A stretch of 64,000 nt of DNA from Azadirachta indica (lineage: Eukaryota > Streptophyta > Magnoliopsida > Sapindales > Meliaceae). Positions 11,643 through 62,770 of this stretch are shown in pieces. Positions within the stretch are counted from its first letter, which is position 1. The number at the start of each line of letters is the position of its first letter. The notes under the pieces are model-generated. The model ran no database searches. It was not told where the DNA came from and worked only from the letters and a program-made list of their open reading frames with translations. Position numbers and translations under genes: made by a program. The stretch covers positions 14,862,169 to 14,926,168 of the forward strand of contig CM040448.1 of the NCBI GenBank assembly GCA_022749755.1, read 5' to 3'.

Positions 11643-14600
11643 TTATGTTGTAATGAACTGGATTCTTGGCCATTGCAATCGCTGATTTGTTGTCACAATG
11701 CAGTGATTGTTCCTTGTTCTTGCTTCTTCCCATGTCTTTAAGTATTCTCCCCAACCATATAGCATATCATGTTGCCAATAAGCCTGAAACATATTCTGCT
11801 TCAGTTGAGGATTAAGCAGCAGTTTGTTGCTTTTTTGAACACCAAGAAAACACACTTGAACAAAGAGAAACTACAAAGCCATTTGTGCTTTTCATGTTAT
11901 CTAAATGGCCACCCCAATCACTATCACAAAAGCCTATTAACTTAAACTTTTATGTTCTTCTAAAATTTGATTTCGAACTTTATGGTATCTTGAATGTACC
12001 TAAACACTCTTTTTGCCACTCCAAGATGAATATGGATTGGGTTGTTCGTGAATCTTGACAACAAGCTTATAACCAACATTATATCTAGCCTTGTTACAAT
12101 ACGATAAAGCAAGTTTTCAACCAAACTTCTATAATGAGTTGCATCTAGTTTCTTTCCTCCACCTTCTTTTTTTAATTTTTCATTCACAACAAGTGGTGTA
12201 GCTACAACATTGCATCCAAACCTTCTTTACTTCTTCAAAATATTTTCTGCGCACTTCTTTTAAGGTATAAACACATGCCATCTTTATCTTGGTGAATTTT
12301 TATCCCAAGAAGGTATATCAACAACACCATGTCACTCATTTCCTATCTTTCCATTATTTCATTTTTAAAGTCATTTTTCACTTCTCATTATTACCCGTAA
12401 AAGTCAAGTCATCAACATGAATGGCAACAATGAGAATGTCTAGCATACCTTGCTTCTTTATATACAATGCTGGCTTACTTTTGCTCTTTATAAATCCTTT
12501 TTGATTGATGTAGGAATTAATTTGACTATACCAGGCTCTTGGAGCTTATTTGAGCCCATACAATGCTTTCTTGAATTTATAGACTTTGTCTTCTTCATTC
12601 TTAACTACAAATCTACCAACAAAAACATTTTCTTCTAATTCTCCATTCAAGAAAGCTAATTTCACATCAAGTTGGTACAAAAACCAATCTTTTTGTTCCA
12701 CCAAGGCAATGAGAGCTCTAATGGTGTCAAGTCTTGCTTGAAAATCAATACCGGCTTGCTGTAAATAGTCTTTAGTAATCAATCTTGCTTTGTATCTTCT
12801 GGTTTTAAAGCTATATAATCTATAACCTTTTGAATGTAAGTTATAGCCAACAAAGATGCACCTCTCACTTGTTTCATCAAGGTTCTTTCTATTTTTTTTG
12901 GAACTCGAGATAAAACACATAAACAAAAACTTTCAAGTGCCTAATAAAAGGCTTTTTTTTTTTATTCCAAGCTTTTAAAGAAGTTTTGTTGGTCAAAGCC
13001 TAGGTTGGTGCTCTATTTATCAAGTACATAGTTGTATGAACTAATTCAGACAAAAAATTCTTATGTAAAGCTTTTCTCATGTAACATGGATTTTACCATC
13101 TCCATCATGGTTTGATTTTTCCTCTTGATTACCCTATTTTGTTGTAGAGTATAACCCACTATAAGTTATCTATCTACACTTTCATCTTCACAAAACTTGT
13201 TAAATTGATTTAAGGTATATTCTTTACCTCTATCACTTCTCCAAACTTTGATGAAATAACCACTTTATTTTTTAATAAAACTCTTGAACTTTTTGAAGAT
13301 TGTGATTTGTTTTAAATTTTTGTCTCATGAAAAACACCCATGTCATCCTTGAATAATTATTAATAAAGAGAATGAAGTATTTATTACCTCTATTAGATAT
13401 GGTATTCATTAGTCTACAAACATCGATATGAACTACCTCAAGCATTCGCTTTACTTTCCATGTTACTCCTTTTGAAAAAGATTGTTTATGGTGCTTTCTA
13501 ACTGCATATCTCTCACATACTTCTTATTTTTCTTCTACTTTTGGAAGGCCATCTATCTTATTTTTATACTGTAGCAGCTTCAAACTCCCAAAATTTAGGT
13601 GCCCAAATCTTCTATGCTAAAGCCAAGACTCACCCATGGTTTTAGTCTTTAATGTAACATCCTTTGCATACTGAAATTTTAACATAAAGCTTCTATTTTC
13701 TATCTTTATATCAGCCATAATCAGCTTCTCATTTTGTTTATCAAAAATCACGCAACCATTTCTTTCAAATTTCCAAAAATAGGTATTTTCTAGAAGTTGG
13801 CCAACACTCAATAAATTTTGTTTGAAGTCTGGTACTAACAACATAATTGAAATGTATCTAACTTCTCTCTTGGTTTGAGCTCTAATTGTGCCTTTGCCTT
13901 TGGCTTACACAAGAACACCATTTCCCATCTTCACTTATGAGCTAACAAAAGTATCCATTTTGCAAAAAATGCTCTCCTTTCTGGTCATATAATTTGTACA
14001 ACTACTGTGAAGAAGCCAAACTTCATTTCCTTATTTTAATGTACTTTGACATGTATAAAACAAGTTTGCTTCATCATCTTTCTCTTCTCCCAACTTGCTT
14101 GTTGAGTATTCTTGAATCTTCAATGTCTTTTTAGGTGCCTAAACTTCTTGCAATTATGGCATTGAGGTTTTCTCTTAAACCAATAATTTTCTTCAACAGG
14201 GCTACTCCTTTTACAAATTCCACGCTTTTGAAAATTTCCTTTGTCTCCCAGATTTCCATTAACACTTCTTCTACCTCTTCCTCTAAAATTCCAGCCTCTT
14301 CCTCTTCCTCTTCCTCTTCCTCTTGCTTGCTTTTCACCTCTAGATGACTCTCCTCTAACTTGGACATAAGTTTTAGATCCTGCATTAAGCCTAAATTGAA
14401 GGCATTGTCAGAGACTTTTTTGAACACCGTATCAATTTACGCCTAAATAATTTTAGTGAACCCATGGAATCTTGCAATGTTAAAGTATCTAAATCTTTAG
14501 AGTCTTTAATAACTGACAAAATGGGATAAAATTTTTCCACCATTAACCGCAAAACCTTCTCAATCAATTTTTTATTTTTAATTTTTCACCATAAATCTTC

Positions 14601-16857: not shown

Positions 16858-19800
16858 TTACATACTAATTTGTTCACCCTCGTTCCCTACAATTCTCTTC
16901 CAAAACCAATGCTCTCTCCACACTTTATCCATCTGCTCAATTGGCACACTTTTAGTCTCTGGCAAAAGAAAATGCACAAATGCAGTCATCACTGCCACCC
17001 ATCGCCCAAAAAAGAAGAAAGCCCCTGAATTCAAATTGCAAACCTTCTCTATAATTGTTTCTCTAACAACCAAAATGAACAGAAAGTTCAATGCAGCTGC
17101 AAGGCTTTGCCCTGCTGATCTCATCTCCAGTGGGAAAATCTCAGTTGGAACTAGCCATCCCAATTGCCCCGAAGACAATCCAAACCCCGCAACATATATG
17201 CATATCAAAACTGCAACTATATGAGCATAGCTTTTGCTCCATTGACCATCGTCAACAGCCTCGGCTGCCATGATTCCTCCCACCATTATTTAACATAGTA
17301 ACATCTGTATTCCTCCGACTAAAAACAACACTTTCCTGCCAACTTTATCGACCATAAGCATCGATATGAATGTTGATGCTGTTCCTGCAACAACTATCAC
17401 AACTGCAAACATGCATGAAGGCTTTACATCTAGACCAGTTTCCTTGAAGAGACGTGGAGCATATAATACAGTGACACTCATTTCTGTAACGTGTCGGAAA
17501 AATGATATGGCTATTGTCATTACTGGTTGAGTCCCGTATTTTCTTTGTCCGATTTTCTTGTATGGGTTGTTAAGGGTTTCTGAAATGGAGCTTGCTCTGA
17601 TGAGATCTTCGAGTTCTGCTTTGACATCAGTGGTTCCTCGCACGCGTTGCAGTGTCCGCTCAGCCTTCTGGTGATCATCAGGGTGGCGTTGGCTAAGGCT
17701 GTTGGGTATTTCACGATGGAAAAGTGCTCCAAGGGATAGCATTGAATCAGGGACTGCGGACATTGCAAATGATATGCTCCAAGCCCCGTCGTCATTGATC
17801 TGTTCAGTGCCGTAGTTAATAAGTCTACCTGATAGAGTGCCAATTCCAATACTGAACTCGAAGGCATTAGTTGCTCCTCTCTGTATCTTGGTGGTGCCAT
17901 TTCTGAGAGAGATAATGGAACTGCCTGCAAATCAAACGCAGAATATCATGATTAGGTGGTTATGTATAGTACTGTAAACTTATGATAATACATGTTCTGA
18001 AAGATCACTTACTTGATAGGCAAAAACCAAACCCCCAACACCGATCAACGCACGGCCAACTATGATCATGTCGAAATTAGTTGCACCACCGCTGACGCAT
18101 CCACCAGCGAGGAACTCAGCACCGCTGGCCAAGATGGTTGGTTTGCGGCCAAAAGCACTGATGAGGAAGGCGGCAAGGAGGGAAGCACAGAAGCCAGCAA
18201 TATAGAGAGTAGAATTGAGGGTGTTTAATATTTGGCTATCATAATCGCCGTAATCGCTGTTATCCATCTCTTTGCTGAAGAATTTCTCTGAAAATTGCTT
18301 CATAGATGTCACTCCACCTTCAAATTAAATGGTAATTGTCACTTTTTCAATGAACATATCATATTATAAAATTATATTTAAATTTAAATGTAATTAGCTA
18401 GTATTAATTTTATTAATTGTTGTTTACGAGAATTTCGAATTATTGTGTAATTGGTAAACTTCACCCCAAACAGCTACAAACAACTAATATGCGGATGTTC
18501 TTATTTTACCGCAATTTTCTCTCAATTTTTTTTCTAACTTTTTCACCAAAATTTACTTCAACAATTCTGTATTTACATAATTTTGTCTATAAAATTTGGG
18601 AAAAAGGCTTATATTTTTAAAATTTGACCTCTTGAACTGATTAGTCACAATAATTTCAAAAATATTCATGAAAATCTTAGTCTATTTTAAAATGAGGAAC
18701 ATAAGCTTATTTAATTGTAATTATCTAAAAAAACACTCTTAGTTAAAACTATATATAAGAATGATGGATATTATTCTACAGCATATTGATAATTAAATAG
18801 TTATGCATATAGTATAAGTAAAATATAAATTTATTTATTTTACAATATATTAATAATCCAACGTTAATTATAAATTAGAAATTAAATATTTATTAATAAG
18901 ATTATTAATAAAATATAAATTTATAAATAAAATATTTTATTGTTATATTATAATCTACATAAAATATATTTATATACAGCCAAAATATATATAACAAAAT
19001 AAAAATAAAATATATTATTTATAAAATAAATAAAGTTATAATATATTAATAAATATTATAATATCAATGTGCTATAAAATAATATTATTATTTAGTTTAT
19101 TAATGAATTTTACATAAAAGTTTAATAGTTATTTTTTATAAATAACTATTATTATATAGGATATACTTGTCATTTTAAAATAAATTAGGTTTTTTATGTG
19201 TATTCTTGAAATCATTAGAATTAATCAGTCTGTTAGACCAAACTTTAGAAATTTATAAGTCTTTTTACCTATAAAAGTTATGTGAAATTTATTTATTAAT
19301 AATAGATAATTTATAATTGATAAAAACATTGTCATCCCTAAATTTTGTTAAAATAATAAATAACAATATATTTGTTCAATTTTAACAATTTTAATTTTGG
19401 TAGGGAGTTTTTCAAAAATTTTTAAAATAAAAGTGGCAAACGAGTTCAGTCAACATGACAGTGTTGTTAGTTTATATGAGTTGGGTCAAACTCACAATTT
19501 AAACACAAAAGCTCAAACAGCACAACAAATGGGTTGATAAGAAAGTAAGAATAATTAACTAAAATGTTTTAAAAATTAAAAAGCTAATAATGCACATAAT
19601 AATAAGAACTCTATAAAAATCAAATTTAGTCATATTTTGATAATTTTAGTTAATCAAAATCCTTTTTAAAATATTTACAAGTTTTAAAACAAGAAAAACC
19701 TAAAGTCAATGTGACACAATATGAATTTAAAGAGTATGAGTTTGACCGAACTAATTTATTAAAAATTAATTATAACATAAAATTAGGAATGGACTTTAGT

Positions 19801-32943: not shown

Positions 32944-35900
32944 CTACACTAATTGCCATTGTATGTTCCTAGAAATTTCATTTATTAACTTAGAACAGTT
33001 TATATATATATATTTGTTAAGTGCATCTCTCAACCAATGATATCTTACATGAATATGTTTTGATTTTACATGGAAAGAGGAATTCTTACTCAAATAAATT
33101 ACACTTTGATTATCACAAAATACTGCATATTGTTGTTGCTTGAAATCGAGTTCCTGTAAGAACCTCTTTATCCACAACAATTCTTTGCATGCTTCAATTG
33201 TTGAAATGAATTCTGCCTCTGTTGTGGAAAGTGCAACACATTTTTGTAGCCTTAATTGACATGATATAGCTCCACTTGAAAGTGTTATTAAGTAACCTGT
33301 AGTGGACTTTCGAGTATAAATATCTCCCGCCATATCTGAATCTGTATAGCCAACTAACACAGGTTCTCCACTTACAAAGGTGAGTTTGAAATCATAAGTA
33401 CCCCAAAGATATCTTATAATGCACTTCACTGCATTCCAATTCTCTCTTCCTAAATTGGATAAAAATCTACTAACAACACCAACTGCATGAGTTATATTCG
33501 GTCTTGTGCATACCATTGCATACATCAAGCTTCCAATTGTTGAAGTATAAGGAACTCTTTTCATGTCTTCTTTCTCTTTATCTATTGTAGAGGACTGTTT
33601 GGTACTTAACTTAAAGTGTGTAGCAAGAAAAGTGCTAACCACTTTAGTGTTGCTCATATTAAACCTTTCAAGTACCTTTTCAATGTAATGCTTCTGTGAT
33701 ATACACAACTTCTTAGTTGCTTTATCTCGATAAATTCGGATGCCAAGGATTTGTTTTGCTGGCCCTAAATCTTTCATAGCAAAGGATTTGCTCAACTGCT
33801 TCTTTAACCTATCAATTCTAGAAGTATTCCTGCCAACAATCAACATATCATCAACATAAAGCAACAATACAATAAAATCATCATCAGAGAATTTCTACAC
33901 AAACACACAGTGGTTAGAAGAAGTTTTTCGGTAGCCTTGCTCCCTAATAACTGATTCAAACTTCTTATACTACTGTCTTGATGCCTGTTTCAAGTCATAA
34001 AGGCTTTTCTTCAGCTTGCACACATAGTCTTCTTTTCTTTTTATTCTAAAACCCTCTGACTGCTCCATATAAATTTTTTTATCTAAGTCCTCATGTAAAA
34101 AAGCAATTTTTACATCCATCTGCTCAACCTTTAAGTCAAGACTAGCTGCTATGCCCAATACATGAATGGATGACATCTTGATAATTAGAGAAAAGATTTC
34201 ATCAAAGTCAACACCTTTCCTATGGCTAAATCTCTTGACAACCAATCTGACTTTGTATCGTGGTTACGAGGTATGTTCTTCTTGTTTTACTCTGTAAACC
34301 CATTTGTTCTTTAAAGCTCTTTTACCTTTAGATAATTTTACTAACTCAAATGTGTGATTTTCATGCAGTGACTTCATCTTGTATTGTATGGCATCAATCC
34401 ATTCTTTCTTGTGTTCACTTTCCATTGCTTCTGTGTAACATTCAGGCTCTCCCCTATCAGTTAATAACACATACTCACTTGTAGAATATCGTGTAGAGGG
34501 TTGTCGGTTTTTAGTGGATCTTTTAAGTAGAGCATCTAGCGAAGCCTCTAATATAGATGACTGATCCTGAACATCAACATCAACCTCAACCTGTGTATGA
34601 ATGTCAATATCACTTGTACTATGCTGGTTATCCAGGACTTTATTTGTAGGCTGTGGTGGAACATGTGTAAGAAGAACTGGATTCAAGTCTATCAATGCAT
34701 CACTATACTGAGGCATTGCTTTTTTTGACTTCTCAATATCTTGTATAGTTTGGTCTTCCATAAATACAACATCCCAACTTCTTACAAGTTTCTTTTGCAC
34801 TGGATCATAAAACTTGTAGCCAAACTCATCTTAACCCGTAGCCAAGAAATGCACACTGTCTTTTCTTAGCATTAAGTTTAGACCTCTCATCTTTGAGAAT
34901 ATGCACAAATACTTTACATCCAAAGACACGCAAATGATCATAAGCAACATCCTTTCCTGACCAAACTTTATCTAGAATATCAAAATCTAAAGGAACACAT
35001 GGTGTGAGATTCAATACATGTACAACTGTATTCAAAGTCTCCCCCCAAAAAGATATTGACAATTGTGCTTATGAAAGGAAACATCTCACTTTTTCAACTA
35101 GTGTTCTATTCATCCTTTCAGCTAACCCATTTAATTGAGGAGTTTTCAGAGGTGTCTTTTGATGATGAATTCCTAGTTGTCTGTAATACTCATCAAATGG
35201 TCCAGAATATTTATCCCTATTATCAGTTCTGATACACTTCAACTTCTTCCTAGTCTGTCTTTCAATTGAGGTTTGAAATTGTTTGAACACATTTAGTACT
35301 TGATCCTTTATCTTCAATGTGTAAACCACAACTTTCTTGAATGATCATCTACAAAAGTCACAAAATAGAGAGCACCACTAAGTGTTTTTTTTTTATAGGG
35401 CCACAAACATCAGAATGTACTAGTTCGAGTATACCTGATTTTCCAAAGGTGGAGATGTCTTGAAGGCAATTCTAGTTTGTTTCCCTGCCAAGCAATGAAC
35501 ACACTTCTTCAAAGATTCATTTTTCAACCCAAAAAGTATAGTCTTTTTGATCAAAACATTCAAACAATTCTTACTCATGTGACCAAGTCATCTGTGCCAC
35601 AACTCAATTGTATCTTCATTTTTCACTGTATTGATACTACTATCTGCAATCTTTGCTTGCATAAAGTACAATGAAGAACATTTCTTTCCTCGGGCCACAA
35701 TCATGAAACTTTTGCTAATCTTTCATTTACCATCACTAAAGTTGTTGGAGAAACCTTCATCATCAAGTTTACCTGCAGAAATCAAGTTCAAACGAATATC
35801 AGCAATATGTTTAACATTTTTCATATGTAACATCATATCATTATTGGTCTCCAAGCACACATCTCCCATGCCTATGACTTTAGCTAAGCCATTATTTCTC

Positions 35901-36853
35901 ATCTTAACATCTCCAAAATCACTAGATGTATAAGATGTAAAGAATTTCCTTCACGATGTAGCATGAATGGAGGCACCATTATTAATTACCCAGCTGGTCT
36001 CATGGTACACAAGGTTGACAACATCATCATCATACATAATAAGAAAGTCATCTGTAATAGTAACAACTCTGTCATCATTTTTCTTTCCCTTTCTTTTATC
36101 CTTCTTGTTGTCTCGCTTGACCTGTCGACAATACTTCTTTATATGCCCATTCAAACTACAATGATAGCATTCAATATTGGTAAACTTGTTGGTCTTGCTT
36201 TTACTGTTATCTTTGTTCTTTGGACCTCTATTCTTACTCTTCCCACTTTTTTCTGTGACTAAGATATCTAACTGTGAAAAACCCTGTAACTTTCTTCTAT
36301 CCTCTTCATTTAGAACATTATTTTTAGCTAATTCTATGGTGATAATACCATCAGGAATTGAGTTAAATAATGACAATTTAAATGTCTCTCACGAGTTTGT
36401 TAATGTGGCTAAAAGTCATAACCCTTATGCTTCATCTTTAAATTTGATGTTTATTCTAGCCAACTGATTAATGATTTCCTGAAATGCATTCAAGTGATAT
36501 ATCATGGGTTTTCCATCCTGATATTTCAAGTTCATCATCTGCTTTATCAAAAATAGTTTATTATTCCCAATTTTTCTGGCATACAACTCTTCAAGCTTAT
36601 TCCGCAAAGAACTTGCATCTATCTCTCCGTTGATGTGATTCAAAACATTGTCATCTATCCATTGTCTGATATACCTACACCCCTAATGATGAAGCAACTT
36701 CCATTGTACATTTATTTTACTATTGGGTTTTTGTTTCTCAAACATAGGTAAATAATAATCTTTCACATATAAAAGATCTATCATCTTTCCCTTCTATAAA
36801 TGATAATTCGCACTATTCAAATTAACCATTTTACTTGTATTACCTTCCATCAT
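32944..36853 (-). pseudogene. Copia-3 gag-pol, moderately decayed
   Basis: From right to left the domains are: a gag start at 36853; a UBN2-type gag core (36643-36425); a CCHC zinc knuckle CYHCSLNGHIKKYC (about 36165); a protease region WVINNGASIHATS (near 35960), in which the catalytic Asp is replaced by Asn; integrase with IRTDNRDKY and NGLAERMNRT (35329-35069); a post-integrase segment FGCKVFVHILKDERSKLNAK (35062-34826); RT N-terminal KNKWVYRVK (34800-34264); an RT segment with EQMDVKIAFLHEDLDKKIYM (34245-33970); then an intact YVDD box in LLYVDDMLIVG, YSK-type motifs and RNase H with ALSTTEAEFI and KHIHVRYHW (33867-32944). Only a few stops and shifts separate them. It resembles the TNT1-94 type. 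Confidence 0.88.
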
Positions 36854-38244: not shown

Positions 38245-38645
38245 AAAAGTCAAGTAATTATCTCCCAACGTAGGGGCTGGGGAATAATGTTTTTGGGTCA
38301 TCCTCAATCATCGACTTTGATCGCACGTGCTTCTTCTCTTCGAATATCTGAGAGAATTTAATACAGATTTTAATTCTAAAAGTCAAGTAATTATCTCCCA
38401 ACGTAGGGGCTGGGGGAATAATGTTTTTGGGTCATCCTCAATCATCAACTTTGATTGCATGTGCTTCTGCTCTTCGAATAGCTGAGAGAATTTAATACAT
38501 ATGTAAATTCTAAAAGTCAAGTAATGATCTCCCAACGTAGGGGCTGGGGGAATAATGTTTTTGGGTCATCCTCAATCATCTACTTTGACTGCATGTGCTT
38601 CTTCTCTCCGAATATCTGACACAGTTTAATACATATTTTAATGTT
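38245..38645 (+). repeat. Three tandem units of about 133 bp upstream of the receptor kinase
   Basis: Units start at 38245, 38378 and 38512, each beginning aaaagtcaagtaatgatctc or a variant and containing caacgtaggggctggggg, ttttgggtcatcctcaatca and tcttcgaatatctgag. Unit 1 contains the G-box palindrome CACGTG (in gcacgtgct), which the other two carry as gcatgtgct. They lie 0.6-1.0 kb upstream of the receptor-kinase start and may be part of its upstream region. Confidence 0.92.
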
Positions 38646-39247: not shown

Positions 39248-42200
39248 ATGATGAACTCCAATAGTGAATATTCAAGATTGGCGATGATATCTGCTATTTC
39301 TCTTTTTTTTTTTATGTGGGGTTTGTACCGGTACTCATCACACGCTCGAATTAGAACGGGAGGCTTTAATTAAAAGTGGTTGGTGGGATAGCAACAGTAC
39401 TACTAGTATGATCACCAGCAACAACTCTTCCAATCATTGCAATTGGACTGGTATCACTTGCAACGCAGTAGGAAGCATCACCGACATAAACTTATTTGGT
39501 TGCGGAGTAACTGGGGAGCTTGGCCATCTCAACTTCTCTTGCTTTCCGAACCTAGCATCTCTTGATCTTTCCTCAAATAATTTGTTTGGAAGCATCCCAT
39601 CACAAATCAGTGTTCTTTCAAAACTCAAATCCCTTATTCTAGATGAGAATAATCTTGCAGGTGAATTATTACTAGTTTCATATGAAAATATTTAAGGGAT
39701 ATGTATTAACATTCTTTCTTTAATTATAGGTGCTATCCCTACAAAAATTGGGAGCTTAAAAAACCTAGAATATTTTTCTTTTTCTGACAGTAATTTCTCT
39801 GGAACTATTCCATCGTTAATTGGTGCTCTTTCAAAATTCAAATACCTTTATTTGACTAAAAATTTTGAAAACTCTCTTGCAAGCAAGTTACTAATTTTGC
39901 ATAAAAATATTATCCACAACATATATATATATATATATATTAACATTCTTTCTTTAATTATAAGCATTATCCCTGTAGAAATTGGAAACTTGAAAAATCT
40001 TAAATATTTTTCTTTTCCTTACAATAACTGGACTGGAATTATTTCATCACAAATTAGTGCTCTTTCAAAACTCAAATACCTTGTTTTGACTAACAACTCT
40101 CTTACGGGTGAGTTAATAATTTTGAAAACTCTCTTACAAGTAACTAACTTTGCATAAAAATTAATATTAACCAAAGGATATATATCCACATGTTTCCTTA
40201 AATCATAAATTGCATGTGTTGCAAGTGCTATCCGTATAGAAGTTTGGAGCTTGACAAATCTTGTATATCTCATTTTGGATGATAATAATCTCTGAGGACG
40301 CATTCCTTTACAAATTGGTGCTCTTTGGAAACTCGAATTTCTTAGTCTGCATAAGAATAATCTAACAGGTGAGTTATTAATTTTGCATAAAAGTTAATAT
40401 TAACCGAAGGATATATATTCACATGTTTCCTTAAATCATAAATTGAAGGTGCTATTTCTATAGATCTTTGGAACTTGACAAATCTTGTATATCTCATTTT
40501 TGGATGACAATAATCTGTCAGGCAGCATTCCATTACAAATTGGCACTCTTTCGAAACTCGAATATCTTATTTTGAGTGAGAATAATCTTACAAGTGACTT
40601 ACTAATTTTGAAAACTCTCTTACAAGTAACTAATTTTGCATAAAAATTAATTAATATTAACCAAAGGATATATATATTCACATGTTTCCTTAAATCATAA
40701 ATTGCATGTGTTGCAAGTGCTATCCGTATAAAAGTTTGGAGCTTGACAAATCTTGTATATCTCATTTTGGATGATAATAATCTCTCAGGACGCATTCCTT
40801 TACAAATTGGTGCTCTTTGGAAACTCGAATTTCTTAGTCTGCATAAGAATAATCTAACAGGTGAGTTATTAATTTTGCATAAAAGTTAATATTAACCAAA
40901 GGATACATATTCACATGTTTCCTTAAATCATAAATTGAAGGTGCTATTTCTATAGATATTTGGAACTTGACAAATCTTGTATATCTCATTTTTGGATGAC
41001 AATAATCTGTCAGGCAGCATTCCATTACAAATTGGCACTCTTTCGAAACTCGAATATCTTATTTTGAGTGAGAATAATCTTACAAGTGACTTACTAATTT
41101 TGAAAACTCTCTTACAAGTAACTAATTTTGCATAAAAATTAATTAATATTAACCAAAGGATATATATATTCACATGTTTCCTTAAATCATAAATTGCATG
41201 TGTTGCAAGTGCTATCCGTATAAAAGTTTGGAGCTTGACAAATCTTGTATATCTCATTTTGGATGATAATAATCTCTCAGGACGCATTCCTTTACAAACT
41301 GGTGCTCTTTGGAAACTCGAATTTCTTAGTCTGCATAAGAATAATCTAACAGGTGAGTTATTAATTTTGCATAAAAGTTAATATTAACCAAAGGATACAT
41401 ATTCACATGTTTCCTTAAATCATAAATTGAAGGTGCTATTTCTATAGATATTGGGAACTTGACAAATCTTGTATATCTCATTTTTGGATGACAATAATCT
41501 CTCAGACAGCATTCCATTACAAATTAGTGTTTTTTTAAAACTCAAATATCTTTATATCTATAATAACTCTCTTACATTTGAGTTATAAATTTCACGTGCT
41601 TCCTTAATTAAATTATACATTATATGTGCAATTCAATCACATCACATGTGAGTTACAAATTAAGATATATTTTGAAGATAGTTATTAATTATCTTAGTTG
41701 ACCTAATGGGCATGATTCAATCATAGGTACAATTCCACTTGAAATTGGGAAGCTGAAGAATCTAGTCTCTCTGTATCTGGGAAATAACAAACTAGCAGGA
41801 CATATTCCTTCAACTCTTGGTCATTTAAGAAATTTGACCTATTTGGACCTCTCTTGTAACCAACTCAACGGCTCAATTCCACTAGAAATAGGAAGCAAAA
41901 CCAGTACCCGTTCTCTAATTCTTTCCTCAAATCTACTTTCTGGTCAGATACCAATTAAAATTGGACAACTCTTCAACCTTGATGTTCTAGATGTCTCTAA
42001 TAACAGACTTACTGGTCCCATTCCATTAGAGATTGGCAGCCTTAGAAAGCTATCTCTTCTTAATTTGAGCTATAACTTTATTGGCGGAACGATTCCTGTC
42101 CTACTTGCGGACATGCCATCAATAGAATATGTTTATCTTAGCCACAATAACATTTCTGGCACCATCCCTAAATCTCTTGTAAATATACCTTACTTTGACT

Positions 42201-43590
42201 TGTCATACAATATGTTGGAGGGTGAAATCCCCCTGGATCTTGAATATACTCGCCAACCAGACCAATTTCTAGGCAACAAAGGTCTATGCAGTACTCACCT
42301 TAGCGGATTTCCTTCTTGTTCTATACAATATCCTCAAGCAACGGCTGCTTCTCCACCTACACCACCTCCTGCAATCCATGCCTTGAAAAAGAAGTCGAGA
42401 AAAATTATAACAATTCTCTTCATCACAATTTGTCTTCCTGCCACGGTATTTGTCATCTTAATTTTTCGATTCTTTCTACTCAAGCATAAGAATAAAGAAG
42501 ATAAACCCAACGTATCATCAATTAGTAAGAGTGGAGACTTGTTCTCAATATGGAATTACAATGGTAGGATTGTATTTGAAGATATAATTACGGCGACAGG
42601 GGACTTTGATATCAAATATTGCATTGGAACCGGAGGGTATGGCAGCGTTTACAAGGCACACCTATCCGATGGCAAAGTAATTGCTCTGAAAAAGCTTCAT
42701 CGTTCCGAAATAGAGGAATCGACTTTCGTTAATAGTTTTTATAATGAAATTCATGTATTATCCAACATAGTACATCGAAATATTGTGAAGCTTTATGGTT
42801 TTTGTTTGCACAAAAGATGCATGTTTCTCATTTATGAGTACATGGAGAGAGGAAGCTTGTTTTGTGCTCTACGCGATGATGATGAAGCTGTTGAGTTGGA
42901 TTGGAGAAAAAGAGTTAACATTGTCAAGAATATGGCACATGCTTTGTCCTACCTGCATCATGACTGCATACCTTCAATTGTTCACCGAGACATTTCGAGC
43001 AACAACATTCTACTTAACTCAGAATTTGAGGCATTTGTTGCTGATTTTGGCACGGCTAGGCTACTACATTTGGATTCATCTAATAGAACTATAATTGCAG
43101 GCACTTATGGATACATTGCTCCAGGTAATAAAACTTCTCTTTCTTATGCCATTCTGTTTGTTGTCAATAACACATACTATCAAGTGTCATATCTTTGGTA
43201 TATTTATCATTTTCTCTTCTTGTAGAACTTGCATATACCATGGTTGTGACAGAGAAATGTGATGTTTATAGCTTTGGTGTGGTGGCACTAGAAGTATTAA
43301 TGGGAAGACATCCAGGAGATCTTCTTTCATCAATATCCTCATCAGTATTTGATCAAAGGATAAGGTTAATTGATGTTTTAGACCAACGCCTCTCACCTCC
43401 AACTAATCAAAAGGTGGTTGAAGATATTGTTCTTGTTGCGACAACAGCATTTTCATGCTTGCAACCCAACCCCAAGTCCCGACCTACAATGCAACGAGTG
43501 TCACAAAAATTTCTCACTCAGAAGACAACTCCATTGGTGAAACCCATTCGAGAAATTTCCATCTCAGAACTTAGAAACAGAGAATTGTGA
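39248..43590 (+). CDS. LRR receptor-like kinase gene with amplified, partly broken LRR exons
   Basis: A plasma-membrane receptor kinase of the MIK2-like LRR type. Exon 1 (39248-39660) has a hydrophobic leader ([12 protein letters not shown]), an LRRNT with [10 protein letters not shown] and the first LRRs. The leader and LRRNT are in different frames across a poly-T tract near 39301-39313. It ends NNLAG with donor CAG/GTGAAT. LRR exons of about 144 bp (two LRRs each) follow at about 39730, 39965, 40226, 40449, 40718, 40941, 41210 and 41433. They are separated by short introns with gtgag or gtga-type donors, and several contain a stop or a 1-nt shift. Exon 41727-43124 and exon 43226-43590 are open and encode the last LRRs, TM and kinase. 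As written, the locus cannot give one unbroken protein unless damaged exons are skipped. It may be a recent pseudogene or an actively remodelled gene. Confidence 0.8.
39730..40107 (+). other. Diverged LRR exon modules 2 and 3
   Basis: Two module exons upstream of the amplified block. Module 2 (from 39730, after acceptor attatag) encodes [19 protein letters not shown] and [18 protein letters not shown]; its end has an extra aattttgaaa segment and an unclear donor. Module 3 (39965-40107) encodes [20 protein letters not shown] and [19 protein letters not shown] and ends with donor GGTGAG. They show the ancestral one-exon, two-LRR arrangement. Confidence 0.7.
40219..41577 (+). repeat. 492-bp tandem repeat comprising two LRR exons and two introns
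   Basis: Units begin at 40219, 40711 and 41203, exactly 492 bp apart; the third is partial. Each unit holds an exon encoding [20 protein letters not shown] and [16 protein letters not shown], an intron, a second exon from the motif gtgctatttctatagat, and a second intron ending ttgcaag. Units 2 and 3 look nearly identical, including introns, while unit 1 differs more (for instance ctctgagg, a stop, against ctctcagg). All units carry an extra T in tcatttttgg of the second exon, which shifts its frame. Confidence 0.95.
41727..43590 (+). CDS. Intact kinase-encoding exons of the LRR receptor kinase
   Basis: After acceptor tcatag (41726), one open frame gives several LRRs (for example [20 protein letters not shown]), a Cys-containing end ([16 protein letters not shown]), a TM segment ([19 protein letters not shown]) and a Ser/Thr kinase. 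Kinase motifs are the glycine loop [10 protein letters not shown] (about 42624-42655), ALKKL with the ATP-binding Lys, HRDISSNN (about 42983-43005; an RD-type loop) and DFGTAR (about 43042). The APE Glu codon is split by the intron 43125-43225 (CCAG/GTAATA ... TTGTAG/AACTT). Exon 43226-43590 encodes [20 protein letters not shown] and ends ISELRNREL. All catalytic residues I checked are present. No internal stop is seen here. Confidence 0.9.
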
Positions 43591-55541: not shown

Positions 55542-55598
55542 CATCCTAGCTGCTTTGCTCATCTTAATTAGAGAGCTTAATAGAATTAAACATTATAT

Positions 55599-58500
55599 AT
55601 GGGGAACTTATCCCTATGTTTCTTTGCATTTATGTACTTAGTTTCTTCCTCCTTACCCTTTCACACTGCAGCATTTACTCACTTTCCTTCTTCATCTCTG
55701 CATCCGATCTGCCATGATCAGGAGCGCTCTGCCTTGTTGAAATTCAAAGACAGCCTTATCATTGATCAGTTTGCTTCTCTTGATCCTTCTGCTTATCCGA
55801 AGGTTGCTTCATGGGAGCCCGATAAAGAAAATAGTAACTGCTGCTTGTGGGACGGCATCGAATGCGATGAAGAAACTGGTCATGTTGTCGGGGTTGATCT
55901 CAGTAGTAGTTTTCTCTATTGTTCTATCAACTCTACCAGCAGCCTCTTCGACTTAGTTCATCTTCAATGGCTTAATCTTGCTGATAATAATTTCGATTTA
56001 TCTACAATTCCATCCGGGATCATTAACTTTACGACATTATCGCATCTGAACCTCTCTTTTTCTGGCTTTTCGGGTCAAATACCAAGGGAGATACTAGAGC
56101 TCTCCAAGTTGGCTTTCCTTGATTTATCATATAATGATGATTTGGAGCTCCAAAACCCCAATCTAAACGATCTTGTTGGGAATCTATTCAATCTGAATGT
56201 GCTTGATCTCAGTAGGGTGAAGATTTCCTCTCCAATACCGCCTGCATTGACAAATTTATCTTCCTTGACATTTTTATCATTTAGAAGGTGCGGATTGCAA
56301 GGTAAGTTACCGCACATATTTTCCGATTAATTAATCTTTAAGTTCTCAATAAAAAATCTTAAAGCATTATTCTCTCTCTTTTTTTTTTTTTTTCCTAATG
56401 ATCTCTAAGTCAAAGCTTAGAGAGAATTTATTAAAAATAAAAAGCATTATTCTCTTTACTTACATGTTGGAGCCACCTCCTTAATTTTCAGGAAAAATTC
56501 TGTCTTCACTTGCCGATCTTACCAAGCTCGAGCATCTAGACCTTTCATATAATGGATTTTCAGGTGAGCTGCCGGCTTCATTTGGTAATCTTACCCAGCT
56601 CAGTTATTTGTCAATTTCTGGCAACAATAACTCACCCATTCGGACCTCTTATTCATTGTCTTGGATTGCTAATCTTCAAAACCTCACCTATTTGGCCCTC
56701 TCAAATAGCAGTTTAACTGGTGAGATCCCGTCTGCGCTCATGAACCTAACACAGCTTACTAAGTTAGATCTGAGCTATAACCAATTAACTGGTCCAATCC
56801 CAGCTTGGTTGGTGAACTTCAACAAACTAAGATCACTTATCTTAGATTCCAATAAACTCTCTGGAAATATCCCATTTGCAATTAAAAACTTAACCCAATT
56901 GCAGCATTTGAGTCTTTTTTATCTAATAGATTGGAAGGCTCCATTCCTATTTCTATCTTTGAGCTCGAGGATCTTCAACAGCTTAGCCTTTCCTTTAACA
57001 ATTTGAGTGGCACAGTGGATCTAAGCATGTTCAATCTTCACTTGAAAAGTTTGGAAATACTAGAGCTCTCGTCAAACAACTTGTCATTGCTTACCGGAGC
57101 CACTGTTAATATCAATTCGCAGAAATTCACGACTATAGGATTCAGTTCATGCAACCTTAGCAATTTCCCATATTTTCTGCACAACCAAGATCAATTATTG
57201 TCGCTGGATCTTTCCTCCAACAAGATAGCTGGCCAAGTACCTGCATGGTTCCTGAATGTTGCTACAAATAGTTTGGAATATTTGAACCTTTCATCTAATC
57301 AATTGACAAGCTTTGGGCATAAGCTTAATGTTCTTCCATGGACTGGTCTAGATACTTTAGACCTTAGCTTCAATAAGCTGCAAGGACAACTCCCAGTTCC
57401 ATCGGGGCTCATGTTTTCCTATATTGTTTCAAACAATGAGTTGACAGGGCATGTTCCACCTCGATTATGCAATGCGAACAAACTTGGAGCTCTTGATTTG
57501 TCTTACAATAACTTAAGCGGCATGCTTCCAAAATGTTTGGGAAATTTCGGTCAGGAGTTGTCGATATTAAAACTGAAAGGTAACAATTTTCATGGAAGCA
57601 TTCCTCAAACCTTCATGAACAGTTCAAAGCTGATGATGATTGATTTAAGCAATAATTCATTCCAAGGAAGAATACCTCAATCACTAGCCAATTGCGTGCA
57701 GCTAAAATTTCTTAACCTTGGAAATAACCAAATAACTGATTTCTTTCCTTCTTGGTTGGGAACTCTTCCAGTGTTAGAGGTCCTCGTTTTAAAATTCAAC
57801 AAACTTTATGGAATAATAGAGGACCCCAAGACAGAACTCGAGTTTCCAAAATTGCGCATTATAGATCTCTCTCATAATAGATTTACAGGTAATCTTCCAG
57901 CAAAGTCCTTTTGGTGTTGGAATGCCATGAAAGACACCAATCCAAGTAAGCTAACATATTTGCATGAAACATTCTTGCCACCCTCTCATCCTGTGGGTCC
58001 CTTATTTGGTTCTTTCGATTATTCACTCATATTGAGTAACAAAGGCATAGACATGGAATATGAAAAGCTCTCAAATTTGATCACAGCAATAATTCTCTCC
58101 AGCAACGAATTTGTAGGAGAGATTCCAATATCAATTGCAAGTTTAAAAGGGCTTCGAACTCTCAACCTTTCCAACAACAATCTCGAAGGTCATATTCCAT
58201 CATCTTTGGGTAACCTTACTGTAGTAGAATCATTGGACCTCTCCAACAACAAGTTCTCGGGTGAAATTCCTCAACGGCTAGGAGAGCTTACAGCACTTGC
58301 AGTCTTTGATGTGTCAAATAACTATCTTACAGGACCAATACCTGGAGGAACACAATTCACCACATTCAATCGTAGTTCATTTGATGGAAATCCAGGACTA
58401 TGTGGAGAACCTTTGTTGAAAAAGTGTGAAAAATCTGAGACCCCGGAGGAAGAAGAACCACAATCAAAATCTCCATTTGCATTTAGTTGGAAAATAGTTG

Positions 58501-58640
58501 TAATTGGATATGCATGTGGAACAATAATAGGAGTGGTTCTTGGGCACATCTTCAGCACAAGGAAACAAGAATGGCTTGTAATGACTTTTCGACTGCCGCT
58601 AAAAACTACAGCTAGGAGGAAGAGGAGACGCAGGAATTAG
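55599..58640 (+). CDS. LRR receptor-like protein (RLP, Cf-9-like) with one intron and one frameshift
   Basis: Cell-surface receptor without kinase, a family that acts with SOBIR1-type adaptor kinases in immunity or development. Exon 1 (55599-56301) has a signal peptide (MGNLSLCFFAFMYLVSSSLP), an LRRNT with CHDQERSALLKFKDSL and CCLWDGIECDEETGHVVGVD, then the first LRRs. It ends GLQ before a good donor (AAG/GTAAGT). Acceptor ttttcag is at 56491, and exon 2 resumes as GKILSSLADLTKLEHLDLSY. A 1-nt deletion or 2-nt insertion near 56920 (agtcttttttatct) shifts the frame, and the similarity continues from 56931 in the next frame. The remainder encodes many LRRs, the island domain (SNKGIDMEYEKLSN), four closing LRRs, GNPGLCGEPLLKKC, a TM helix (VVIGYACGTIIGVVLGHIF) and a short basic tail. 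Apart from the shift it looks intact. Confidence 0.88.
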
Positions 58641-58666: not shown

Positions 58667-58766
58667 NNNNNNNNNNNNNNNNNNNNNNNNNNNNNNNNNN
58701 NNNNNNNNNNNNNNNNNNNNNNNNNNNNNNNNNNNNNNNNNNNNNNNNNNNNNNNNNNNNNNNNNN
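58667..58766. other. Assembly gap (100 N)
   Basis: A run of exactly 100 N is the usual placeholder for a gap of unknown size. It begins 26 bp after the RLP stop and hides the left end of copia-4, including its 3' LTR and any target-site duplication. Confidence 0.99.
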
Positions 58767-61720
58767 TTTTCTTTAAGCTTTTCAAATCTGGTTTTAGGCA
58801 AAGTTTTAGTTAGAATATCTGCCATCTGTTCTTTAGACGTACATTGAATGAGGCACACTTCCTTATCCTTTTCTACTTCTCTCAAAAATTGAAACCTAAC
58901 CTTCATATGCTTAGTTTTCCCATGCTGCACTGGATTTTATGCAATAGCAATAGCTGACTTGCTATCACAAAAGATTGGACTAGCATTGGTCTGTTTGAAG
59001 CCTAAATCAATGAGTATTTTTCTTAACCAAATGCATTGATTTGCACCTACTGCAGCTGCAATAAACTCTACTTTAGCAATAGCAATCAACATCTTGCTTT
59101 TTAGAACACCAGGAAAACATTCCAAAATCAATTGAAAACACATAACCTGAAGTGCTTTTTCCATCATCAACATAATCAGCCCAATCATTGTCTATATAGC
59201 CAAACAAACTCGGTTCTCTTTTAGGTCTAAACCAAATACCAAAGTCGTATGTGCCTTTCAAATACCTCAACACCATTCGACCAACTCCAAAATGCACTTG
59301 ATTCATATTTTGCATAAATCTTGAAAGTAAACTAGCTGCAAACATAATGTCAGGTCTTATTGCAGTCAAATACAATAAACTTTCCACAAGGCTTCTATAA
59401 CGGAATGTATTAGCTCTTGCATCTCTATCAAACTTGGACAACTTTTGATTCACTATAAGTGGTGTGCTTAGAGGTTTACAATACTGCATTCGGAACTTCT
59501 TTAGCAGATTAATGACATATGATTGCTGTGACACAAAAATTCCTTCAGTGGTTTGATGAATTTTCAAAGCCAAGGAAGAACTTTATCTCACCTAAGTCTG
59601 TCATTTCAAACCTCTGATACAGCTGCTACTTGAAAACATTCACATCATCAATTTTGATACCAATTATTAACAAATCATCAACATATATTGACACAATTAG
59701 AGTATCAATAGAATGAGATGTTTTGATATAAAGAGTAGCATCATTACAACTCCTCCTAAAACCACAATCACAAAGAAATTCATCAATCTTGCTATACCAG
59801 GCCCTTGGTGCTTGTTTCAGGCTGTAGAGTGTCTTGTGTAGCTTATAGACTTTGTTCTCCTCTTCATTAATTTTGAAACCTTCTGGTTGCTCGGTAAAAA
59901 TCTCTTCCTTTAGATGACCATTGAGACATGCAGATTTGATATCAAGATGGAAGATTTTCCATCTATTTTTGGCAGCTAAAGTAATAAGCAATTTAATTGT
60001 ATTAAGCCTGGCAACAGGAGCAAAAATGTCTCCATAATCAGTACCTGGCTGTTGAGCATATCCTTTCACAACAAGCCTTGTTTTACGCTTGTGTATAGAG
60101 CTATCTGCATTAAACTTAATTCTATACACCCACTTTACACCAACAACTTGTTTATGCAAAAGCTTATCAACCAATTCCCAAGTTTTGTTCTTTTCTATCA
60201 TAGCAATCTCATCTCTCATAGCAGTATTCCACTCCTCACGATTGGATGCTTCCAAGAAGTTTGAAGGGCCAACCGTAGCAACATTGCACCTTACAAACAC
60301 ATTTGATAGACTACATATTCTTAGCACCAGGGAATCTGTTGTGCTTTGAACATTTGCTTCATCCTCTCTATTCATCTCTTGAACAACATCTCCATGTAAA
60401 TTTGAGCTTCTAACTTGTCCTGAAGAGGCTGGAATAATTTCAGCATCTGATTCTTGCCAACGCCATTTTGAGCTTTCATCTATCTTTACATCTCTACTAA
60501 GAACAACTTTCTTATTCTCTAAATCAAAAATTCTGTACCCCTTTACTTGATTGCTATAACCAAGAAAAATACCCTTTCTTGCCTTTTCAAAGAGCTTATC
60601 CCTCTTGACATTAGGTACATAGACGTAATATACTGATCCAAAGACTTTAAGGTGTTCAACAGAAGGTTTTAAGCCGCTCCAGGCTTTAATAGGTGTTTTC
60701 CCATCTACAACATAGGTTGGCAATTGATTTTGTAAGTATACTGAAGTGTATACAGCTTCTGCTCAGAACTTCTTAGGCAAGTTCTTCTCATGTAGCATGC
60801 TTCTTGCCATCTAGAGAAAAGTTCTATTCTTCCTTTCACACACTCCATTTTGGTGTGGTGAGTAAGGCACTGTCAATTGATGTTGAATTCCAGCATCTTC
60901 ACAGAATTTGACAAACTCATTTGAGATGTATTCCTTTCCATTATCAGTTCTTAACTTCTTCACCCTGAAACCACTTTGTGTTTCAACAAAAGACTTGAAT
61001 TTCTTAAAGTAAGAAAATGCTTCAGATTTGCTGTTCATGAAATAAACCCATGTCATTCTAGTCAAGTCATCAACAAACAAGATGAAATATTTGTTTTGGT
61101 TCAAGGATAGAGTTTGCATAGGCCTACACACATCTGAGTGCACTAGTTCTAGCTTCTCAGTAGCTCTCCACTTAGCTTGAGATGGGAAGGGAAACCTGTG
61201 GAGTTTTCCCATTTGGCAGTTTTCATAAACTTCATTACATATATTTACAGGAGACATATCATTTCTCTTACAAAAACTTCAAAGATCTGAAGTTTACATG
61301 ACCAAATCTCTTATGCCACAATCAAGACTCATCAATAACAGTTTTGCATGCAAAAGAAGTGTTTGAATGCCAATTAATAGTGAAGCTTTTATCAGTCATA
61401 GGCATAGCAACAACCTTATCTTCAAAAGAATTAGATATAACACATGACTTATCTTTAAAAAACAAAGAATATCCTTTATGCATCATTTGCCCAACACTAA
61501 GCAAGTTTTGGTCTAAATTAGGAACCAATAACACATTATTTATAAACTTGATCCCTTTTGAGGTTGGAATAGAAATTGTACCTTTTCCAACAGATTCAAT
61601 GATTTCACCATTTCTTAACCTGACTGGAATTCTGACTTAGGTATCCAAAGTGTTGAAAAATTCTGAGTTTGAAGTCATGTGATTTGTACAACCACTATCT
61701 AGTAGCCATGAAAGTTTATT
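58767..61720 (-). pseudogene. Copia-4 pol (protease to RNase H), a few stops and shifts
   Basis: From right to left: a protease motif WLLDSGCTNHMTS (near 61690-61715) with catalytic Asp kept; GAG-pre-integrase LVPNLDQNLLSVGQMM (61534-61322); integrase (61257-60811) with DVCRP, LRTDNGKEY and NGVCERKNRT, so the DDE residues are present; then two stop codons before the post-integrase and RT frame (60723-59626) with VFGSVYYVYVPNV, GVKWVYRIKF and YVDDLLI. A TAG and a shift near 59570-59625 separate RT from RNase H (59573-58767), with RPDIMFAASLLSRF and CTSKEQMADILTKTLPK. It needs only a handful of changes to be unbroken, which suggests recent insertion. Confidence 0.9.
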
Positions 61721-61839
61721 TGATGCTTCCCTTGACTAAACAGCCATAAATAAGTGATCTTCGGGTTGTTTTTCCTCTACTACATTTGCTTGCTGTTTTT
61801 GTTGGATATGTTGTGATGGAAAATGCTAATTTTGCTGCC

Positions 61840-62655
61840 TTTTTAGTTTGCAATGCTTGGCAATATGTCCAACTTTCTTGCAAACTCTACATTGAGCCTT
61901 CTTCCAACAACTAGTTTCATGATGATTAGTCTTCTTGCAGTGACTACAAGGAGGAAATCTTCATTTCCCTGACTCCCTTTGTTCAGCTTCACCAGCCTTA
62001 CCTCTATGGCTTTTATCACCAGATAGTCTCTTGTCATCCTTGGAGCTGAATGACCTTGTATACTTGGCTTGAAAGGCCTCCTCAGATTGGCTTTCTGATC
62101 TGACAAAAGTTCTTTGCTCTTGAACCCGTAGCTTGCTAATCAACTCTACAACAGTAAGGCTTTTGAGGTCATGAGACTCATCAATAGCTGATACTTTAGC
62201 CTCAAACTTTTCTGGGAGACTTATCAGCATCTTTTCATTACTTTGGAAGAGTAATCTTTGATTGTCTCTGCCTCTCTCATCTTTAAATTCTCAAACTCTC
62301 TTTTGAGAGTAAGCAACCTGACTGCCTTTACCCTGTCACTGCCTTCATTTTGTTCCTTCAGCTGATCCCACACTTCCTTTGCTGTCTCAAGGGCCATGAT
62401 TCCAGTGAAAACATGATCTGCCAAAGCTGAATATAACACAGTAAAAGCCTTGTCTTTCTTAAGCAACTCTTCCTCGCATTGCTTCATTTGTGCAATAGTT
62501 GGGTTTGCTCTAAGAGAAGGAGGATCTCTACCTGTCTCAACAGCATCCCACAAATCCAGAGACTTTAAGTCATACCTCATCTTGACTACCCAAATCTGAT
62601 AGTTTTCCCCTGTGAACATTGGTATAGCAAGGTAGGAAGTGTTTCCTGAAGCCAT
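61840..62655 (-). pseudogene. Copia-4 gag
   Basis: It starts at ATG 62655 (MASGNTSYLAIPMFTGENY), with the UBN2 gag domain and LKREFENLKMREAETIKDYS. A shift near 62225 joins it to a second segment (62230-61961) with LPEKFEAKVSAIDESHDLKS. Zinc-knuckle sequences, including CRVCKKVGHIAKHC, follow near 61860-61895 in another frame. The upstream extension of the frame to 62685 has no ATG before 62655. Confidence 0.88.
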
Positions 62656-62770
62656 AGCTCTCTCTCTGCTATCTATAACTCTCAAGTATTGTTTTGATTC
62701 AACCTTTTAGCACTCTGCTTCTCTTGCACTGACAGTCCCGTGAAGAACATTCAAGGGCTCTGATACCATT

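What the first reader, a model, noticed from the sequence alone, without database searches (positions are those of the whole stretch)
40219..41577. Recent tandem amplification of a two-exon LRR module inside a receptor-kinase gene
Three units start exactly 492 bp apart (40219, 40711, 41203). Each carries two exons of about 144 bp, and each exon encodes two 24-residue LRRs. Units 2 and 3 look nearly identical even in introns, so the event is young. Because whole exon-intron modules are copied with the same phase, this mechanism could lengthen an ectodomain without breaking the frame. The copied unit, however, already carried a 1-nt insertion in its second exon.
Basis: partly seen in the sequence, partly recalled or inferred. 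Interest (0 to 1): 0.78.

Follow-up and report, generated by a model that had tools for sequence, protein, structure and literature searches.

The report
Multiplying dead exons in plant receptor
A plant receptor gene, probably from the neem tree, carries a young and still changing tandem array of two LRR exons, but the copied exons are already broken, so the array most likely sits as dead weight inside an intron, while a related gene on another chromosome shows what looks like the same process lengthening an open receptor frame.

Summary
The array is real: three units 492 bp apart, each a 143-nt exon A and a 145-nt exon B with introns. Units 1 and 2 are 98.8% identical; the third breaks off near 41552.

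The interpretation needs changing. The window recurs inverted 6.6 Mb away on the same contig (0.18% substitutions outside the array), and that copy has 7 A and 8 B exons against 3 and 3: the array changes fast, and one difference between the copies falls inside an intron. But all 11 B exons have stops in every frame, A exons cannot be chained, and the last B exon lost its donor. At these exon borders no open path holds more than one array exon; skipping the array leaves an intact 824-aa frame in the second copy. So whole array exons do not lengthen the ectodomain here.

The mechanism looks real elsewhere: a paralogue on C3 has a four-exon unit repeated about 2.6 times in an open 1069-aa frame, and two Melia proteins hold near-identical 48-residue modules. 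No RNA was available; 72-nt half exons, which do chain openly, are not excluded.

The parts
39248..39660 (+). Exon 1 (signal peptide, N-terminal cap, first LRRs). In the window one more T in the T-run (39303) than in the second copy puts the ATG out of frame; the second copy is in frame.
39730..39886 (+). Module exon D (two LRRs); GT donor at 39887 gives exit phase 2, a GC donor at 39883 is an alternative.
39965..40107 (+). Module exon C (143 nt, two LRRs); entry phase 2, exit phase 1.
40108..40225 (+). Intron after C; 95-97% identical, gaps aside, to the introns after A1-A3, B1 and B2; in the second copy its 5' part is joined to an A-type 3' end.
40226..40368 (+). Array exon A1 (143 nt); in-frame TGA, stops in all three frames.
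40449..40593 (+). Array exon B1 (145 nt, one extra T); stops in all three frames.
40718..40860 (+). Array exon A2; open only with entry phase 2, exit phase 1.
40941..41085 (+). Array exon B2 (145 nt, one extra T); stops in all three frames.
41210..41352 (+). Array exon A3; open only with entry phase 2, exit phase 1.
41433..41577 (+). Array exon B3 (145 nt, one extra T); stops in all three frames and TT instead of GT at the donor.
40178..41552 (+). Extent of the 492-bp tandem homology.
41727..43124 (+). Exon K1: remaining LRRs, a hydrophobic (transmembrane-like) stretch, first part of the kinase; open.
43226..43590 (+). Exon K2: rest of the kinase and stop codon.
40789..40860 (+). Possible 72-nt half exon (one LRR, phase 1-1, open) from a mid-exon AG in A2; an open 72-nt half of the same kind is present in each of the 6 array exons here (B3's has no GT donor).

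Best explanation
The window holds one of two near-identical copies of a MIK2-like LRR receptor kinase gene. In several genes of this family part of the ectodomain is built from 144-nt exons (two 24-residue LRRs each) separated by short introns. Unequal homologous exchange seated in those introns adds or removes whole exon-intron modules (shown: the array, the difference between copies, one recombinant intron; inferred: the crossover itself). At this locus exon B was already broken before the pair A+B was amplified (shown: the same insertion in 11 of 11 B exons). The array therefore most likely behaves as an intronic satellite of dead exons between C and K1 and is spliced out, leaving a receptor with two modules (inferred from open frames; no RNA). 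In a paralogue on C3 what looks like the same process copied mostly open exons and lengthened an open frame.
For: Array and identities. Second copy, inverted, on the same contig with 7 A and 8 B exons; outside the array 113 substitutions in 62,133 aligned bases. Its seven A modules (222 bp each) are identical, and B2-B5 are of one type apart from a small intron difference in B5, so its growth is very recent. Recombinant intron after C in the second copy: 5' part as in the window's C intron, 3' end as in an A intron. Frames; 5 open paths in the window and 10 in the second copy, none with more than one array exon; E1-D-C-K1-K2 is open from ATG to stop in the second copy, 824 aa. The annotated Melia relative P0001 has a single module, by eye. 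C and A2 introns differ at 4 of 80 aligned sites (38 gapped positions aside) while their exons differ at about 14 of 32 synonymous sites. C3 paralogue: 9 modules with AG/GT borders, unit copies 1 and 2 96.8% identical over 1,024 aligned bases, open 1069 aa. Pairwise dN/dS against paralogues L028 and L022 below 1: kinase part of K1 0.30 and 0.14, K2 0.35 and 0.19, whole K1 0.45 and 0.24, exon 1 0.31 and 0.53.
Against: Splice sites were set by analogy, not by transcripts. The D-C join needs a poor-looking GT donor. In the window copy exon 1 is also out of frame, so that copy as a whole may be a pseudogene. Each array exon holds a mid-exon AG from which a 72-nt half exon would be open and chainable, which would make the array coding. 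dN/dS is pairwise, averages over time, and L028 itself has a 1-nt deletion. The intron homogenisation does not hold for every pair: intron identity of D with C or A2 (0.81, 0.82) is about equal to the best of 100 shuffles (0.84, 0.81), and in L022 the M1-M4 introns are as diverged as their synonymous sites.
Confidence: 0.75

Rival explanations
1. The array is coding as single-LRR half exons: the spliceosome uses the mid-exon AG (TCTCAG, TGTCAG, or TCTGAG in A1) instead of the 5' acceptor, giving 72-nt phase 1-1 exons that chain freely, so each unit adds 48 residues and the two copies differ in receptor length.
For: Open path D-C-A1h-B1h-A2h-B2h-A3h exists in the window, 907 against 787 residues counted from within exon 1; in the second copy 15 of 15 half exons are open, 14 with AG and GT, and all 14 together give an open frame of 1160 against 824 aa. 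Mid-exon acceptors are about as T-rich and pyrimidine-rich as those of A, B and K1, though poorer than those of D, C and K2. Between A2 and B2 the second halves show 4 synonymous and 8 other changes, the first 19 codons 1 and 12, a count inflated by the insertion.
Against: The upstream acceptors (AG) of A and B are still present; the mid-exon AG can arise by a synonymous change; copies are so alike that the open halves are only two independent cases; the half counts are too small to show selection; the annotated Melia relative uses one ordinary module.
Confidence: 0.08
2. The whole window gene is a pseudogene and the array is simply decaying DNA (overlaps with the best explanation as far as the array is concerned).
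For: Exon 1 frame break in the window, stops in the array, a nonstandard D donor.
Against: The second copy is open over 824 aa; K1 and K2 are open in both copies, which differ there by two substitutions; pairwise dN/dS of the kinase part of K1 0.14-0.30.
Confidence: 0.3
3. The array exons are used one at a time in place of C (mutually exclusive splicing): D-A-K1 is open for every A except A1 of the window.
For: Open D-A paths: 2 in the window, 7 in the second copy.
Against: The A exons in the second copy are all identical, so the choice would add no diversity there; no RNA evidence.
Confidence: 0.05
4. The second locus is not a real duplication but the other haplotype placed wrongly in the assembly; the unit numbers are then allelic. 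This concerns the copies, not what the array does.
For: A published neem assembly reports 0.896% heterozygosity (PMC9069239); in the window copy there is a run of 100 N where the other copy has 10.2 kb, and the window begins directly after another run of N, though N may also mark withheld stretches.
Against: The right end of the homology is a clean junction with no N near it on either side, and no near-identical second copy of the sequence beyond was found; block divergence (0.18%) is far below that heterozygosity; the same paper reports recent small-scale segmental duplication, Ks peak about 0.01.
Confidence: 0.4

Closest known systems
MIK2-like LRR receptor kinases (MDIS1-interacting receptor like kinase 2-like / At1g35710-like)
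   Same: N-terminal cap, 24-residue LRRs, hydrophobic stretch, RLK kinase with one late intron; by my count 32 of the 120 listed hits carry one of these two names.
   Different: Several neem members carry 144-nt LRR exons split at the Gly codon (phase 1); the window member has an array of dead copies.
Rice LRR-kinases with short LRR exons (PMC3050792; start of abstract, three passages and section 6 seen)
   Same: LRR exons of 72 or 144 nt encoding one or two LRRs; the authors propose exon duplication and shuffling; the commonest structure has one kinase intron splitting GAA/GAG between G and A, as K1/K2 here.
   Different: There the LRR introns are mostly phase 2 at the first Leu of the motif; here phase 1 at the Gly between LRRs in the relatives, and the array copies are nearly identical, introns included.
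Tetrahymena 90-bp-exon LRR genes (PMC6564038; 12 passages seen, part of the abstract included)
   Same: Tandem arrays of equal-length LRR exons with one intron phase, young repeat units detectable at DNA level, exon number varying by ectopic recombination.
   Different: 90 bp and phase 2, very many genes in ciliates; here 144 bp, phase 1, a few plant genes.
Prunus Ma TNL post-LRR exon repeats (PMC6141779; 7 passages seen)
   Same: Repeated exons inside a plant resistance gene formed by exon duplication and loss.
   Different: Post-LRR domain of an NBS-LRR protein, repeats conserved among orthologues.
LRR copy-number change by intragenic unequal exchange in Cf-2/Hcr2, RPP5 and flax L/M (recalled, nothing read here)
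   Same: LRR number changed by intragenic recombination.
   Different: Not compared here.

Membership tests
LRR receptor-like kinase, MIK2-like | LRR ectodomain plus protein kinase domain | tested here: met
   Pfam LRR_1, LRR_8, LRR_4, LRR_14, Pkinase and PK_Tyr_Ser-Thr in K1
LRR receptor-like kinase, MIK2-like | Nearest relatives are MIK2-like | tested here: inconclusive
   32 of 120 listed relatives bear the name, but among solved structures GSO1, ERL2, PEPR1, FLS2 and At4g26540 score above MIK2 (8weh, row 7); no family tree was built
LRR receptor-like kinase, MIK2-like | Complete open frame from ATG | tested here: inconclusive
   Second copy open over 824 aa when the array is skipped; window copy out of frame in exon 1
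LRR receptor-like kinase, MIK2-like | Perceives a peptide ligand | not testable with these tools
   none
Tandem LRR exon array that extends a receptor (Tetrahymena-like) | Equal exons with the same intron phase | tested here: not met
   A 143 nt, entry phase 2, exit 1; B 145 nt, no open frame; met by 8 of 9 modules of the C3 paralogue, 144 nt phase 1-1, the ninth 165 nt
Tandem LRR exon array that extends a receptor (Tetrahymena-like) | Copied exons open and chainable | tested here: not met
   11 of 11 B exons closed in all frames; only 72-nt half exons chain
Tandem LRR exon array that extends a receptor (Tetrahymena-like) | Introns of the copies nearly identical | tested here: met
   A introns 97.5-100%, B1-B2 introns 100%; the last B intron only 77%

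The most novel reading that the evidence does not exclude
The array is still coding through 72-nt half exons entered at a mid-exon AG, one LRR each, phase 1-1, so that intron-seated exchange tunes receptor length in steps of one or two LRRs. With all usable half exons the two chromosomal copies would differ by nine LRRs (5 half exons in the window; 14 in the second copy, open frame 1160 aa).
Probability: 0.08. Interest if true: 0.65.

Novelty: new member of a known kind. Interest (0 to 1): 0.4.

Why it matters
It gives a readable case of how LRR exon number changes in a plant receptor family: an array with an open frame (C3 paralogue) and a dead array (window) of the same kind of exon, with unit number differing between sequences only 0.18% apart. 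It suggests that amplification by intron-seated exchange does not need selection for longer proteins, since broken exons are multiplied too, and it makes the rate and the exchange point measurable in one species.

Tried and rejected
Rejected: serial inclusion of whole A and B exons. Rejected: chance repeat (six differences in 492 bases between units 1 and 2). Uninformative: the search with L029, flooded by a satellite-like repeat and not returning even its own place. A tree of 33 modules (47 columns) clusters the labels by gene more than shuffles do (12 changes, 0 of 200 shuffles as low), but 21 of 27 inner branches are open and the window's, C10 and C2 modules do not cluster; independent expansion in neem and Melia is suggested, not proven. 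Paralogue L028 was first taken as an intact reference but has a 1-nt deletion at the end of K1 (by eye), so it is no proof of function. Paper searches: the listings I saw (20 of 422, 12 of 1,280, 7 of 7, 8 of 17, 3 of 3, 6 of 343 and 2 of 2 papers) showed no title or abstract start on this array or on 144-nt phase-1 LRR exons in neem; most papers of subscription journals are not held. Not used: structure prediction, the search for related loci, the DNA search.

Full report
Observation. The 492-bp array is in the sequence as described. Tandem Repeats Finder gives period 492, 3.0 copies, 96% matches; the lag comparison shows near-unbroken match from 40178 to 41033, with 6 differences between units 1 and 2 and 4 between units 2 and 3 up to 41014. 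The third unit is truncated: exon B3 diverges in its 3' half (88.7-89.4% to B1 and B2) and homology ends near 41552. By splice-site analogy each unit has exon A (143 nt), an 80-nt intron, exon B (145 nt) and, in units 1 and 2, a 124-nt intron.

The gene. K1 carries LRRs, a hydrophobic stretch and most of a protein kinase, K2 the rest. The best protein match is a Melia azedarach receptor kinase at 83%. The genome held has 280.8 Mb in 21 contigs; a neem assembly of 281 Mb on 14 chromosomes is published (PMC9069239: abstract, sections 4 and 17 and passages seen). I infer neem or a close relative; no record names it.

A second copy. A search of the window's own genome with one unit found a second array on the same contig, within C9:8286675-8290313, minus strand. 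The window aligns there inverted along its length, the N run apart: outside the array 113 substitutions in 62,133 aligned bases, 0.18%, and 80 indel events. The window has 100 N at 58667-58766 where the other copy holds about 10.2 kb. Sampled pieces show that homology goes on to x=14961400 / y=8218741 and ends there in a clean junction without N; no second near-identical copy was found for pieces at 14812001, 14965001 and 14977001. On the left the window begins directly after a run of N, which may be a gap or a withheld stretch. Whether this is a segmental duplication or a misplaced haplotype I cannot settle; the neem paper reports both 0.896% heterozygosity and recent small-scale segmental duplication. 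With the rate used there (3.39e-9), 0.18% would be about 0.27 million years.

Array change. The second copy has 7 A and 8 B exons, the window 3 and 3. In the second copy all seven A modules (222 bp) are identical, and B2 to B5 form one type apart from a small difference in the intron of B5. There exon C is followed directly by a B exon; the intron between them has the 5' part of the window's C intron and the 3' end of an A intron, as one exchange within the intron would leave it. The introns of C and A2 are 95% identical over 80 aligned bases (38 gapped positions; best of 100 shuffles 86%), where about 14 of 32 synonymous sites of the exons have changed (Fisher p about 3e-6 on rounded counts). 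A and B introns of units 1 and 2 are 96% identical while the exons are 84%. So these introns were homogenised or exchanged after the exons had diverged. It does not hold everywhere: intron identity of D with C and A2 is about that of the best shuffles, and in L022 the M4-M5 introns are closer than their synonymous sites (0.05 against 0.14) but M1-M4 are not (0.20 against 0.19).

Frames. All 11 B exons are closed in all three frames. A1 of the window is closed; the other 9 A exons are open only with entry phase 2 and leave in phase 1. The last B exon in both copies has TT in place of GT. Walking all ordered combinations at these borders gives 5 open paths in the window and 10 in the second copy, none with more than one array exon. 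The path E1-D-C-K1-K2 is open from ATG to stop in the second copy, 824 aa. In the window one more T in exon 1 breaks the ATG frame. The annotated Melia protein P0001 has one module between exon 1 and K1, by eye; its DNA was not seen.

A weaker, bolder possibility. If splicing used the AG in the middle of each exon, 72-nt half exons of one LRR each, phase 1-1, would chain. In the window the longest open path rises from 787 to 907 residues counted from a point within exon 1. In the second copy 14 half exons with AG and GT give an open frame of 1160 aa. Because the copies are so alike, these are two independent cases (A and B), not twenty-one. I give this 8%.

Elsewhere in the genome. Other loci carry the same kind of exon. 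On C3 at 16.10 Mb (L022) a four-exon unit is repeated about 2.6 times; copies 1 and 2 are 96.8% identical over 1,024 aligned bases, copies 2 and 3 93.2% over 600. One exon type of the unit has lost its acceptor in all three copies, but the nine other modules have AG and GT borders and lengths of 144 nt (eight) or 165 nt (one), and with exon 1, K1 and K2 give an open frame of 1069 aa. A related locus on C3 at 19.01 Mb (L026), with upstream 3.2 kb 97.4% and downstream 3.4 kb 94.9% identical, shows only three modules. Melia P0121 and P0123 hold 48-residue stretches 92% and 98% identical within the protein. Among relatives, 40 of 120 (one search list) and 40 of 110 (new ids of the list) hold, in the first 900 residues, a 48-residue stretch at least 85% identical at a lag that is a multiple of 24; both lists are the best 120 of about 3,000. 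So near-identical LRR copies are common in this family.

Known kinds. Rice LRR-kinases have 72- and 144-nt LRR exons with phase-2 introns, attributed to exon duplication (PMC3050792). Tetrahymena has arrays of 90-bp LRR exons with phase-2 introns (PMC6564038). Prunus Ma has repeated post-LRR exons (PMC6141779). The present case is a new member of this kind, with phase-1 144-nt exons in relatives and dead exons at the window locus.

Noticed in passing
window 1-64000 and C9:8218741-8330457: The window lies in a block of about 99 kb that recurs inverted 6.6 Mb away; 0.18% substitutions over the part that the window covers; duplication or misplaced haplotype.
   Followed up: partly
window 58667-58766: Run of 100 N where the second copy has about 10.2 kb of sequence, directly behind an LRR protein gene at 55590-58640.
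   Followed up: no
window 38245-38642: A 134-bp tandem repeat, three copies, about 600 bp upstream of exon 1.
   Followed up: no
L022 4571-7486: Four-exon LRR unit amplification in a paralogue with an open 1069-aa frame.
   Followed up: yes
L022 and L026: Two related C3 loci with flanks 97.4% and 94.9% identical differ strongly in module number.
   Followed up: partly
window 40108-41432: Introns after C, A and B are more alike than the exons they separate (C against A2: 95% against about 14 of 32 synonymous sites changed); not shown for the intron after D.
   Followed up: partly
window 12546-12932, 32944-36388, 59073-62706: Ty1/copia-like retroelement fragments on the minus strand, named by eye from the translations.
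   Followed up: no
window 16858-17931: Fragments that look like a sugar transporter on the minus strand, named by eye.
   Followed up: no
L029: About 21 kb left of the window lies a satellite-like sequence with arrays on at least C1, C4, C5, C11 and C12.
   Followed up: no
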